Part shown: piece after piece, positions 46,161-50,969 of the stretch
How the letters are laid out: each line of letters begins with the position of its first letter
Numbering within the stretch: the stretch's first letter is position 1
Origin: Allobosea sp.
Lineage (GTDB): Bacteria; Pseudomonadota; Alphaproteobacteria; Rhizobiales; Beijerinckiaceae
Length of the DNA: 64,000 bases
Direction: 5' to 3'
Assembly (NCBI RefSeq): GCF_017308075.1
Contig: NZ_JAFKFX010000034.1
Coordinates: 106,011 to 170,010 of the forward strand
Notes under the pieces: generated by a model
Told to the model about the DNA's origin: nothing
Seen by the model: the letters and a program-made list of their open reading frames with translations, nothing else
Databases searched by the model: none
Translations under genes and position numbers: made by a program

Positions 46161-48098
46161 ATGTGTGGCTTTGTTGGCTATTTCGGCGCCGTCCGGGATG
46201 GGAGAGCGCTCCTTGAACGGATGACGGCTGCGATCGCCCATCGCGGTCCCGACGAGCAGGGCTTCTTTACCGGACCGGAAGTTGGCCTCGGCCATGCCCG
46301 GCTCTCGATCGTCGGCCTCGGCGACGGCCAGCAGCCGATGTCGGACGCGAGCGGCGCGCTGACGATCGCCTTCAACGGCGAGATCTTCAACTATGTCGAG
46401 CTGCGCGAGGAGCTGCAGGCCAGGGGCCGCCGCTTCCGGACCGCGAGCGACACCGAAGTGATCCTGCATCTCTATGACGAGATGGGTGAGGACTGCCTCT
46501 CGCTCCTCAACGGCGATTTCGCCTTCGCGATCTGGGATGCGCGCCGGCGGCGCATGTTCCTCGCCCGCGACCGCATGGGCGTGCGGCCGCTGTTCTACAC
46601 GCGCCAGGGCGACCGCTTCTATTTCGCCTCCGAGGTCAAGGCGCTGCTCCAGGTGCCGGGGGTGAGCGCGCAGATCGACCCGGTCGCCCTCGACCAGATC
46701 TTCACGCTCTGGGCGCCGATCGCGCCCCGGACGGCCTTCCGCGACATCTGCGAGCTCGAACCGGCGAACCTGATGATCGTCCAGGACGGCGGCATCTCGA
46801 CCCGGCCCTATTGGAGCCTGGGCTATCCCGACCACGACACCCCCTCCCGGCACAGGGACGAACGCGAAGCCGCCGAGGAACTGCGCGCCCTGCTGACCGA
46901 AGCGACGCGCATCCGCATGCGTGCCGACGTGCCGGTCGGCTCCTATCTCTCGGGCGGGCTCGATTCCTCGATCACCTCCGCGCTTGCCGCCCGCATGGTT
47001 CCAGGCGGTCTCAGGACCTTCTCCGTCACCTTCGACAGCGCCGAGCATGACGAGAGCGAATTCCAGCTGGAGATGGCGCGCGCACTCGGCACGCAGCACA
47101 GCGCGGTCGCCTGCCGCGAGGGCGACATCGCCGCCGTCTTCCCCGAGGTGATCCGCTTCACCGAGCGGCCGATCATCCGGACGGCGCCCGCCCCGCTGTT
47201 CAAGCTCTCGGGGCTGGTGCGCGAGGCCGGCCTCAAGGTGGTGCTGACCGGCGAGGGCGCGGACGAGGTCTTTGCCGGCTACGACATCTTCAAGGAGAAC
47301 CGGGTTCGCCGCTTCTGCGCGCGCCAGCCCGGCTCGCGCATCAGGCCGCATCTGTTCCGCAAGCTCTACCCTTACCTGCCCGGGCTGCGGCAGCAATCGG
47401 CGGAGTATCTCGCCTCCTTCTTCGGCGCGAACGGCCATTCCCTCGACGATCCACTCTATTCGCACCGGCCGCGCCTCGACGGCACGGCGGCGACGAAGCT
47501 CTTCTTCTCGGGCGATCTGCGCGCCAGCCTCGGGAATTACGACGCGGCCGAGGAGATGGCCTCACGTCTGCCGGAGGCGTTCGCGCGCTGGCACCCGCTG
47601 CATCAGGCGCAATATCTCGAAGCCCGTTTCCTGCTGCCCGGCTACATCCTCTCAAGCCAGGGCGACCGGATGGCGATGGCCCATGGCATAGAGGGGCGTT
47701 TCCCCTTCCTCGATCATCGGCTCGTGGAGTTCGCCGCCGGCCTGCCGCCCGAGATGAAGCTGAAGGGCCTCGTCGAGAAACACATCCTGCGGGAGGCGAC
47801 CAAGGACCTGCTGCCGCCCTCGATCGGCAAGCGCAGCAAGCAGCCCTATCGGGCGCCCGACAGCGCCTCCTTCGTCGGAGCCGGCGCCGCCGACTATGTC
47901 GAGACGGCGCTCGGCGAGGCCGAGATCGGCGCGAACGGTCTCTTCAACCCGAAGGCGGTCGCCAAGCTGCATGAGAAATGCCGCGCCCGCCCGGCCTCCG
48001 GCTTCCGCGACAATGCGGCCTTCGTCGGCATCCTGTCGACACAGCTCTGGCTCAAGACCTTCACCGGTGCCGACAGCCAGAGCTCGAAAGCCGCCTGA
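46161..48098 (+). CDS. Asparagine synthase-type amidotransferase (AsnB family)
   Basis: A 645-residue glutamine-dependent enzyme. The N-terminal nucleophile Cys2 (MCGFVGY) fixes the start; HRGPDEQG and FNGEIFNY complete the glutaminase domain. The synthetase domain has the PP-loop SGGLDSS (264-270) and TGEGADEVFAGYDIF. Known: besides asparagine synthesis, this family amidates other carboxylates, including in exosortase-type EPS loci (XrtA-associated amidotransferase). Its placement before an acyl carrier protein and an AMP ligase suggests the latter kind of role here. Confidence 0.9.
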   Translation: MCGFVGYFGAVRDGRALLERMTAAIAHRGPDEQGFFTGPEVGLGHARLSIVGLGDGQQPMSDASGALTIAFNGEIFNYVELREELQARGRRFRTASDTEVILHLYDEMGEDCLSLLNGDFAFAIWDARRRRMFLARDRMGVRPLFYTRQGDRFYFASEVKALLQVPGVSAQIDPVALDQIFTLWAPIAPRTAFRDICELEPANLMIVQDGGISTRPYWSLGYPDHDTPSRHRDEREAAEELRALLTEATRIRMRADVPVGSYLSGGLDSSITSALAARMVPGGLRTFSVTFDSAEHDESEFQLEMARALGTQHSAVACREGDIAAVFPEVIRFTERPIIRTAPAPLFKLSGLVREAGLKVVLTGEGADEVFAGYDIFKENRVRRFCARQPGSRIRPHLFRKLYPYLPGLRQQSAEYLASFFGANGHSLDDPLYSHRPRLDGTAATKLFFSGDLRASLGNYDAAEEMASRLPEAFARWHPLHQAQYLEARFLLPGYILSSQGDRMAMAHGIEGRFPFLDHRLVEFAAGLPPEMKLKGLVEKHILREATKDLLPPSIGKRSKQPYRAPDSASFVGAGAADYVETALGEAEIGANGLFNPKAVAKLHEKCRARPASGFRDNAAFVGILSTQLWLKTFTGADSQSSKAA

Positions 48099-48122
48099 CA
48101 CCTCATCAGAAAAGGAACTGAC

Positions 48123-49965: not shown

Positions 49966-50969
49966 ACATTGCCCCTGCCCCTGAAAGCCTCGCCTTCTCG
50001 GCGGAGACGTTGAAGATCGACGGCGCTGCCGAGATCGAGCGGATCGTAACCGGCCTGCGCGCGCAATTGCGTGGCATGCGCAAGCGCGGACTGGTGCTCG
50101 GCCTGTCGGGCGGCATCGATTCCAGCGTCTCGGTGGCGCTGGCGGTGCGCGCGGTCGGTGCCAAGAACGTCTTCTGTCTGTTCATGCCGGAGAACGATTC
50201 CGATCCCGAGAGCCTCAGGCTCGGCCGGCTCGTCGCCGAGACCTTCGGCGTCGCCGCCGTGGTCGAAGATATCGGGCCGACGCTGCAGGCGATGGGCTGC
50301 TATGAGCGGCGCGACGCGTTCATCCGCGAGCTGGTGCCGGAATACGGACCCGGCTGGGGTTCGAAGATCGTGATCGCCAACGCGCTCGCCGGCGAGGGCT
50401 ACAACATCTCCTCGCTGGTGGTCGAGGATCCGCAGGGCAATCGGACCAAGCTGCGCATGCCGCCCACGGTCTATCTCGGCATCGTCGCCGCCACCAATAT
50501 GAAGCAGCGCACCCGCAAGCAGGTCGAGTACTATCATGCCGACCGGCTCAACTTCGCCGTGCTCGGCACGCCGAACCGGCTCGAATACGACCAGGGCTTC
50601 TTCGTCAAGAACGGCGACGGCGCGGCGGATGTGAAGCCGATCGCGCATCTCTACAAGAGCCAGGTCTATGCGCTCGCCGCCGATCTCGGCATTCCCGAGG
50701 AGATCCGCCGCCGGCCGCCGACGACCGATACTTTTTCGCTCGAGCAGACGCAGGAGGAGTTCTATTTCTCCCTGCCCTATGACCGCATGGACCTGTGCCT
50801 CTACGGCCTCAATAACGGCCTCCCGGCCGAGCAGGTCGCCGCGGCCGCGAAGCTGAGCACGGTCGAGGTCGAGCGCGTCTTTGCCGATATCGCCGCCAAG
50901 CGGCGGGCGACGCGCTATCTGCATCTCGAACCGCAACTGGTGCAGCCGGTGGCGGAGATCGCCGGCTGA
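49962..50969 (+). CDS. NAD synthase-like ATP pyrophosphatase (NadE family)
   Basis: A 335-residue N-type ATP pyrophosphatase with PP-loop SGGIDSS (49-55) and a NadE-like C-terminal block (LGTPNRLEYDQGFFVKNGDGAAD, KPIAHLYKSQVYALA). There is no nitrilase glutaminase domain, so it would use ammonia or receive it from a partner. It overlaps the AMP ligase gene by four bases and lies in a polysaccharide locus. Inference: either a real NAD synthase or a recruited amidating/adenylating enzyme. The start is ATG 49962; the long upstream frame lies within the ligase gene. Confidence 0.85.
   Translation: MNIAPAPESLAFSAETLKIDGAAEIERIVTGLRAQLRGMRKRGLVLGLSGGIDSSVSVALAVRAVGAKNVFCLFMPENDSDPESLRLGRLVAETFGVAAVVEDIGPTLQAMGCYERRDAFIRELVPEYGPGWGSKIVIANALAGEGYNISSLVVEDPQGNRTKLRMPPTVYLGIVAATNMKQRTRKQVEYYHADRLNFAVLGTPNRLEYDQGFFVKNGDGAADVKPIAHLYKSQVYALAADLGIPEEIRRRPPTTDTFSLEQTQEEFYFSLPYDRMDLCLYGLNNGLPAEQVAAAAKLSTVEVERVFADIAAKRRATRYLHLEPQLVQPVAEIAG

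What the first reader, a model, noticed from the sequence alone, without database searches (positions are those of the whole stretch)
46161..50969. AsnB-ACP-AMP ligase-NadE cassette inside a polysaccharide locus
Four same-strand genes with tiny gaps or a 4-base overlap encode a glutamine amidotransferase (Cys2 intact, PP-loop intact), a free acyl carrier protein (Ser40), an acid-activating AMP ligase and a NadE-like ATP pyrophosphatase. Established knowledge: exosortase A (XrtA/PEP-CTERM) EPS loci carry an amidotransferase, a carrier protein and an AMP-forming ligase of similar type. Here no exosortase is visible and a NadE-like protein is added. Inference: a carrier-bound acid is activated, amidated or aminated, and transferred to the polysaccharide or its lipid carrier.
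Basis: partly seen in the sequence, partly recalled or inferred. Interest (0 to 1): 0.7.

Follow-up and report, generated by a model that had tools for sequence, protein, structure and literature searches.

The report
Amide-building carrier-protein gene module
Four neighbouring genes, usually joined by one or two more, form a conserved gene module that probably builds a small amide-bearing group on a carrier protein and attaches it to an amine, here perhaps on a surface polysaccharide; the product is still unknown.

Summary
In detail: asnB-acp-AMP ligase-nadE lie on one strand with gaps of 24, 28 and -4 bases. They are a real module: the order is kept in 76 of 80 loci, and all four genes are present, in three orders, in 12 of 12 further NadE-positive genome regions. 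The genome has a separate NadE, PrmC and three more AsnB, so these are paralogues. XrtA was not found in the genome and both XrtA family cut-offs are missed, so this is not the XrtA system. Polysaccharide context is common but not required: 45 of 80 loci show none of the window's main polysaccharide families in the fetched flanks (an upper limit). Best reading: an acid is loaded on the carrier, amidated, sometimes N-methylated, and passed by the GNAT to an amine, here probably of the polysaccharide. Acid, acceptor and the NadE-like enzyme's substrate are inferred or unknown. New variant of a known kind.

The parts
46161..48098 (+). asnB-type glutamine amidotransferase / ATP-pyrophosphatase, 645 aa; proposed to amidate the carboxylate of the carrier-bound or free acid
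   Evidence: TIGR01536 507 bits; Cys2 88/88, SGGLDS 88/88, GEG[A/S]DE 88/88 of the aligned homologues
48123..48389 (+). stand-alone acyl/peptidyl carrier protein, 88 aa, Ser40
   Evidence: D39-S40 in 61 of 61 aligned; best PDB match peptidyl carrier protein 2my5, E 3.5e-12; PF00550 17.8 bits, under its cut-off
48418..49965 (+). AMP-forming acid ligase, 515 aa; best solved relatives are NRPS adenylation domains; Asp214 and Arg316 in the substrate-site motifs
49962..50969 (+). NadE-like ATP pyrophosphatase, 335 aa, no glutaminase domain, about 53 residues inserted between the two conserved blocks
   Evidence: NF002048 523 bits; alignment to 2e18; model m77bd8a0a8a45, pLDDT 83.8
51015..52130 (-). 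GNAT-type (probably tandem-GNAT) acyltransferase, 371 aa, frequent partner of the module; proposed to transfer the finished acyl group to an amine
   Evidence: 68 of 80 loci; model m5c047d308cd6 pLDDT 93.6; Foldseek: the 50 matches listed are N-myristoyltransferases; no Pfam or NCBIfam match at E 0.01
52127..52885 (-). PrmC-like methyltransferase with NPPY, overlapping the GNAT gene by 4 bases; proposed amide N-methyltransferase
   Evidence: TIGR03534 176 bits, below cut-off 199; NPPYI 39 of 39 aligned; 33 of 80 loci, the 4-base overlap in 15 of these 33
52994..54358 (+). Wzx-type flippase of the surrounding polysaccharide locus
   Evidence: PF01943 50 bits; matched in 21 of 80 loci
54348..55490 (+). 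second GNAT, paralogue of the first, in the polysaccharide part
   Evidence: same ORF cluster as the first GNAT
55503..56525 (+). GT2 glycosyltransferase of the polysaccharide locus
   Evidence: PF00535
56522..58708 (+). glycoside-hydrolase-like protein of the polysaccharide locus
   Evidence: weak PF00150 match, E 0.0018, under the cut-off; the gene in the same place in Sinorhizobium meliloti is annotated glycoside hydrolase
44324..45826 (-). GumC/Wzc-like chain-length protein of the polysaccharide locus
   Evidence: TIGR01005 162 bits, below cut-off
42975..44399 (-). O-antigen ligase/polymerase-like membrane protein
   Evidence: weak TIGR03097 match; the gene in the same place in Sinorhizobium meliloti is annotated O-antigen ligase
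42212..43153 (-). HfsH-like polysaccharide deacetylase; could free the amine that is acylated
   Evidence: NF050820 170 bits, below cut-off 400
39538..42237 (-). two GT4-like glycosyltransferases (39538-40845 and 40960-42237)
   Evidence: matches to GT4-type families, all under their cut-offs

Best explanation
A dedicated amide-building module. SHOWN: the four genes form a conserved unit, usually with the GNAT and often with the PrmC-like gene. INFERRED: the AMP ligase activates a small acid, in this sub-type perhaps an amino acid (Asp214 aligns with the aspartate that holds the alpha-amino group in NRPS adenylation domains; numbering recalled), and loads it on the stand-alone carrier. AsnB uses glutamine to turn a free carboxylate into an amide. 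The PrmC-like enzyme, a paralogue of an enzyme that methylates a glutamine side-chain amide, N-methylates that amide where present. The GNAT passes the finished acyl group from the carrier to an amine, here most likely of the polysaccharide or its precursor (an HfsH-like deacetylase could supply the free amine). The NadE-like enzyme makes a second amide on a carboxylate other than NaAD, with free ammonia or ammonia from the AsnB glutaminase; its substrate is unknown.
For: Order kept in 76 of 80 loci, ligase/nadE 4-base overlap in 51 of the 79 loci with both genes; all four genes in 12 of 12 further regions, in three orders. GNAT in 68 of 80; of 66 classified loci 36 converge just downstream of nadE, 21 lie just upstream of asnB on the same strand, 9 elsewhere. 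PrmC-like gene in 33 of 80, with a 4-base overlap to the GNAT in 15 of these 33, NPPYI in 39 of 39 aligned. Separate copies exist: NadE on C43, PrmC on C12 over cut-off, three other AsnB over cut-off. In the genus the closest form of the glycosyltransferase at 40960-42237 (72% identity or more) is in 7 of 61 genomes, and all 7 have the module on the same contig, 7.6-7.8 kb away. Among 78 ligases with a residue at position 214 the Asp form goes with the PrmC-like gene in 33 of 60 and the other forms in 0 of 18; for polysaccharide genes 34 of 60 and 0 of 18. AsnB homologues acting on an ACP-bound carboxylate are proposed in print (PMC7756379, passages); a NadE homologue adapted as NMN synthetase is reported (PMC3376133, one passage).
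Against: No substrate is shown for any of the proteins. Asp214 is lacking in 18 of 78 ligases (G, T or N) and in L116-L118, so the acid cannot be the same everywhere; the amino-acid adenylation model TIGR01733 ranks fifth for the window ligase and is under its cut-off (301 against 317), behind acyl-CoA ligase models. The GNAT was not detected in 12 of 80 loci nor in 8 of the 15 further regions. 45 of 80 loci have none of the main polysaccharide families among their called genes; 3 of 10 module-bearing genomes of the genus lack the glycosyltransferase, and 15 genomes have a 64-69% homologue of it without the module; the 72% line was drawn after seeing the list. The N-myristoyltransferase match has TM about 0.5 and rmsd 7-9 A over the whole chain: a shared fold at most. 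The 33/60 and 34/60 contrasts follow the family tree and are not independent events.
Confidence: 0.4

Rival explanations
1. The module makes a free small molecule or an amino lipid (such as an N-acyl amino acid amide) and is only placed by chance or regulation beside polysaccharide genes; the GNAT acts like OlsB (recalled), joining an acyl-ACP to an amino compound whose carboxylate AsnB or the NadE-like enzyme amidates.
For: 45 of 80 loci show none of the main polysaccharide families; of 145 neighbours scanned (of 150 picked) the commonest families are ABC transporter parts and methyltransferases, and no glycosyltransferase family is among the 25 of 154 families shown; the GNAT's listed fold matches are N-myristoyltransferases; the carrier's best NCBIfam model is the ornithine-lipid ACP, far below cut-off (62 against 130).
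Against: In the genus the closest form of the glycosyltransferase occurs in 7 genomes, all with the module (identity line drawn after the fact, and 15 genomes with a 64-69% homologue lack the module); in Sinorhizobium meliloti the GNAT, PrmC-like gene, flippase and polysaccharide genes lie within about 10-28 kb of the four genes; the Asp214 form argues against a plain fatty acid here.
Confidence: 0.31
2. A variant of the XrtA/PEP-CTERM exopolysaccharide amidotransferase-ligase set, working on the same substituent without the exosortase.
For: Among NCBIfam models TIGR03108 is second for AsnB and TIGR03098 first for the ligase; L116 has the XrtA-system deacetylase TIGR03006 over cut-off beside the module, in a genome without an XrtA match.
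Against: Both XrtA families are missed by wide margins (436/817, 472/592); no XrtA over cut-off in the 12 module-bearing genomes tested, with matches under the cut-off in one of them, G663.
Confidence: 0.15
3. Ordinary duplicates of asparagine and NAD synthesis that happen to be co-transcribed.
For: The motifs for ATP and ammonia chemistry are kept; NCBIfam names NF002048 NAD(+) synthase.
Against: A separate NadE and three further AsnB exist; the NadE-like protein has about 53 inserted residues between its two blocks relative to 2e18; linkage to carrier and ligase is kept in distant genomes.
Confidence: 0.07

Closest known systems
XrtA/PEP-CTERM exopolysaccharide amidotransferase (TIGR03108) and ligase (TIGR03098)
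   Same: AsnB-type amidotransferase and AMP-forming ligase in a surface-polysaccharide setting; PMC9012009 (one passage) mentions two asparagine synthetase genes in such clusters of Zoogloea and Aquincola
   Different: No XrtA found, scores under both cut-offs, NadE-like and GNAT genes added, often outside polysaccharide loci
Malonamyl-ACP starter formation in glutarimide polyketides (GdsB/C/D; PMC7756379, passages)
   Same: AsnB homologue proposed to amidate an acid bound to a stand-alone ACP
   Different: There an acyltransferase loads malonate and a PKS uses it; here an AMP ligase would load and a GNAT unload; no PKS seen
NAD synthetase NadE
   Same: PP-loop, ATP and ammonia motifs
   Different: About 53-residue insertion, separate NadE in the genome, conserved operon with carrier and ligase
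PrmC, release-factor glutamine N5-methyltransferase
   Same: Catalytic domain with NPPY
   Different: Match begins at profile position 53; under cut-off; second copy in the genome
N-acetylglutaminylglutamine amide synthesis (TIGR03104)
   Same: AsnB-type enzyme working with an acyltransferase-containing partner (recalled)
   Different: 380 bits against a cut-off of 570; no carrier protein there (recalled)

Membership tests
XrtA/PEP-CTERM EPS system | XrtA exosortase in the genome | tested here: not met
   No TIGR03109 match in the own genome; no control genome over the cut-off in that search
XrtA/PEP-CTERM EPS system | Amidotransferase over TIGR03108 cut-off | tested here: not met
   436.1 against 816.9 bits
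XrtA/PEP-CTERM EPS system | Ligase over TIGR03098 cut-off | tested here: not met
   472.5 against 592.35 bits
XrtA/PEP-CTERM EPS system | PEP-CTERM target proteins | not tested
   -
AsnB family | Cys2 glutaminase plus PP-loop synthetase domain | tested here: met
   TIGR01536 507 bits; motifs 88 of 88 aligned
AsnB family | Substrate is free aspartate | not testable with these tools
   -
NAD synthase, PRK00876 subfamily (NF002048) | Score over curated cut-off | tested here: met
   523.3 against 313 bits
NAD synthase | Converts NaAD to NAD | not testable with these tools
   A separate NadE on C43 would make it unnecessary
PrmC | Over TIGR03534 cut-off, full-length profile match | tested here: not met
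   176 against 199 bits, profile 53-252 of 253 only
N-myristoyltransferase-like fold | Foldseek match over the whole chain | tested here: met
   E 3.9e-14, 367 columns, TM 0.49; that these enzymes are tandem GNATs is recalled
N-myristoyltransferase-like fold | Uses myristoyl-CoA | not testable with these tools
   -
NRPS-type amino-acid adenylation domain | Over TIGR01733 cut-off and Asp at the alpha-amino site | tested here: inconclusive
   300.7 against 317.4 bits; Asp214 present in the window, 60 of 79 homologues

The most novel reading that the evidence does not exclude
A carrier-protein pathway assembled from paralogues of three housekeeping amide enzymes (AsnB, NadE, PrmC) that builds N-methylated or doubly amidated aminoacyl groups and hands them from a carrier protein to an amine through an N-myristoyltransferase-like GNAT, giving bacterial polysaccharides an unrecognised amide decoration.
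Probability: 0.25. Interest if true: 0.78.

Novelty: new variant of a known kind. Interest (0 to 1): 0.56.

Why it matters
The family NF002048 bears the name NAD(+) synthase, and Sinorhizobium meliloti pSymB records annotate this gene so, yet in the loci examined here it belongs to a carrier-protein module. If the reading is right, many NAD synthase and asparagine synthase annotations in rhizobia and their relatives (542 confirmed matches in a capped scan, 80 of them examined) point to a surface or small-molecule pathway instead. Because the model legume symbiont carries it, the question can be tested with a standard laboratory strain.

Tried and rejected
Considered and rejected: XrtA membership; simple housekeeping duplication; a DHDPS-family aldolase as recurrent source of the acid (annotated near the genes in S. 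meliloti, and present in L151, but the S. meliloti protein matched only 2 of the 96 sequences searched, L089 and L151); ORF cluster c8 as a partner (its representative looks like an ABC ATPase by eye and matches scattered ABC-type genes); the 349-aa protein beside nadE in L117 as a homologue of the GNAT (hhalign probability 0.6%, single sequence against the profile, so a weak test).

Led nowhere: literature searches for the gene set (2, 0, 1 and 1 papers listed, none on such a module by title and abstract start), for NadE-like proteins (4 papers), for S. meliloti locus tags guessed from memory (2 and 0 papers); the guesses may be wrong tags, so their emptiness means little. NC_003078 carries no gene table for the stretch, so another strain's pSymB was used. 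Methanosarcina acetivorans also has NF002048; its neighbours could not be seen. PMC12493201 (abstract and outline) describes the ornithine-lipid pathway behind the carrier's best model; no direct link found.

Flanks are at most 10 kb and cut short at contig ends, so partners further away are missed; in S. meliloti the GNAT lies about 10 kb from nadE, and L019 and L020 of the same genus count here among the 45 loci without polysaccharide genes, so 45 is an upper limit. That count rests on seven ORF clusters only. ORFs were called mechanically. The Fisher value 2.8e-7 uses a cut at 72% identity set after seeing the list; counting all 22 genomes with the glycosyltransferase, 7 of 22 have the module, against 3 of the 39 without it. 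For one search I passed 145 of the 150 picked neighbours, to stay under the size limit. In one search the ligase motif could be read in 12 of 15 regions: 9 with Asp, 3 without; L113, L115 and L119 were not read out.
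Full report
What is there. asnB, acp, the AMP ligase and the nadE-like gene occupy 46161-50969 on the plus strand, with gaps of 24, 28 and -4 bases. AsnB has the catalytic Cys2 and the PP-loop, and the carrier has Ser40; in the filtered alignments of homologues these are kept in 88 of 88, 88 of 88 and 61 of 61 sequences. The genome is Bosea-like (closest named match Bosea sp. WAO, 95%).

Is it a module? Yes. In these 80 loci AsnB is found in 78, the carrier in 79, the ligase in 79; the full order asnB-acp-ligase-nadE on one strand holds in 76 of 80, and ligase and nadE overlap by exactly 4 bases in 51 of the 79 loci that have both, by first-start ORFs. 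Twelve regions from further NadE-positive genomes (12 of the 19 positives other than the own genome) hold all four genes in 12 of 12. Their order is asnB-acp-ligase-nadE in 8, nadE-asnB-ligase-acp in 3 (L120, L121, L122) and asnB-ligase-acp-nadE in 1 (L115). Linkage that survives reordering points to function. The NadE-like protein is patchy: 10 of 61 genomes of the genus, 3 of 385 in a class sample and 15 of 398 in a phylum sample, the own genome counted each time.

Missed partners. The gene at 51015-52130, without a Pfam or NCBIfam match at E 0.01, is found in 68 of 80 loci. Of 66 that could be placed, 36 are convergent just downstream of nadE, 21 are just upstream of asnB on the same strand, and 9 lie elsewhere. 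Its AlphaFold model (pLDDT 93.6) matches N-myristoyltransferases over its length (E 3.9e-14, TM about 0.5, rmsd 7-9 A; the 50 matches listed are all of that kind), so it is probably a tandem GNAT. It is not universal: none was found in 12 of 80 loci, nor in L115-L122. The gene at 52127-52885 overlaps it by 4 bases and is a PrmC paralogue with NPPY; such a gene is found in 33 of 80 loci, with the 4-base overlap in 15 of the 33, and in 8 of 15 further regions, including the reordered L120 and L122. PrmC methylates a glutamine side-chain amide (established knowledge), so its place beside an amide-forming set is suggestive.

Paralogues, not the only copies. The genome has a NadE in a 582-residue open frame on C43, a PrmC over its cut-off on C12, and three other AsnB over the cut-off. 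Relative to the solved NadE 2e18, residues 109 and 178 of the window protein align with 88 and 104, an insertion of about 53 residues, modelled with strands at 133-138, 150-155 and 161-165 (mean pLDDT 83.8, with low-confidence stretches at 203-205 and 214-222). No glutaminase domain is fused, so ammonia must be free or come from AsnB.

What acid? Among solved structures the best whole-sequence scores are NRPS subunits (LgrA, several domains summed), and the best single-domain score is the NRPS protein 3wvn (269 bits) before oxalate-CoA ligase (220 bits). In NCBIfam, however, acyl-CoA ligase models come first and the amino-acid adenylation model TIGR01733 is fifth and under its cut-off. Asp214 falls on the aspartate that binds the alpha-amino group in adenylation domains (numbering recalled). 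It is Asp in 60 of 79 aligned ligases, Gly in 8, Thr in 7, Asn in 3, and 1 has a gap; Arg316 is kept in 79 of 79. Among the 78 with a residue, the Asp form goes with the PrmC-like gene in 33 of 60 and the other forms in 0 of 18; with polysaccharide clusters in 34 of 60 and 0 of 18. Of 15 further regions 9 show the Asp, L116-L118 do not, and 3 were not read out. So there appear to be at least two sub-types with different acids; the window belongs to the possible amino-acid sub-type. These contrasts are confounded by descent.

Polysaccharide or not? Around the window module lie a flippase, a Wzc-like protein, an O-antigen ligase-like protein, an HfsH-like deacetylase, glycosyltransferases and a second GNAT. 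Sinorhizobium meliloti pSymB has a similar set: the four genes, then minC about 2.5 kb further, and about 10 kb from nadE the GNAT, the PrmC-like gene, the flippase, the second GNAT and the polysaccharide genes. In the genus, 22 of 61 genomes have a match to the glycosyltransferase at 40960-42237; the 7 with 72% identity or more all have the module on the same contig at 7.6-7.8 kb, the 15 with 64-69% lack it, and 3 genomes have the module without the glycosyltransferase. In those three (L150, L151 and L111 with its flanks L153 and L154) the six genes stand together without other polysaccharide genes of the window in the stretches fetched; ten of their neighbours include transporters, a sensor kinase, dehydrogenases, a DHDPS-family protein and one NAD-dependent epimerase/dehydratase that could serve nucleotide sugars. 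In 45 of 80 loci none of seven polysaccharide ORF clusters was called, an upper limit because flanks end at 10 kb; of 145 of their neighbours the commonest Pfam families are ABC transporter parts (9 and 8) and methyltransferases (6), with no glycosyltransferase family among the 25 of 154 shown. So the module is separable from, but often tied to, this polysaccharide locus.

Mechanism. The simplest joint reading is: the ligase loads an acid on the carrier; AsnB amidates; the PrmC-like enzyme N-methylates; the GNAT transfers to an amine; the NadE-like enzyme adds a second amide. Only gene linkage, motifs and predicted folds are shown; every catalytic step is inferred. AsnB homologues proposed to work on ACP-bound acids are in print (PMC7756379, passages read), and a NadE homologue with a changed substrate too (PMC3376133, one passage read).

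Compared with what is known. It is not the XrtA/PEP-CTERM system by the three features tested, and none of 12 module-bearing genomes has XrtA over the cut-off, though it resembles the XrtA amidotransferase-ligase pair. I found no paper describing this set in the searches (listings seen); the library lacks most subscription papers, so it may be in print elsewhere.

Noticed in passing
L160 (Sinorhizobium meliloti R14 pSymB), 10200-19476: The four genes lie about 2.5 kb from minCDE; annotated as asparagine synthase, acyl carrier protein, adenylate-forming enzyme and NAD(+) synthase.
   Followed up: partly
G000:C30:5539-16459: Two further AsnB-type genes over the TIGR01536 cut-off, starting about 9 kb apart, elsewhere in the genome.
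   Followed up: no
L066 (record titled Bacillus subtilis strain SK6B4): A module 60-70% identical to the alphaproteobacterial one under a Bacillus title, perhaps contamination or mislabelling.
   Followed up: no
Methanosarcina acetivorans control genome: NF002048 is over its cut-off in this archaeon; neighbours not seen.
   Followed up: no
window 54348-55490: Second GNAT, paralogue of the module's GNAT, in the polysaccharide part; two related acyltransferases could acylate different sites.
   Followed up: partly
window 37037-38665: A groEL-like gene (recognised by eye, not searched) lies next to the polysaccharide locus.
   Followed up: no
L121, about 7377-17606: The reordered module appears to sit among other surface-polysaccharide genes (flippase, nucleotidyltransferase, aminotransferase, sugar transferase; recognised by eye, not searched).
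   Followed up: no
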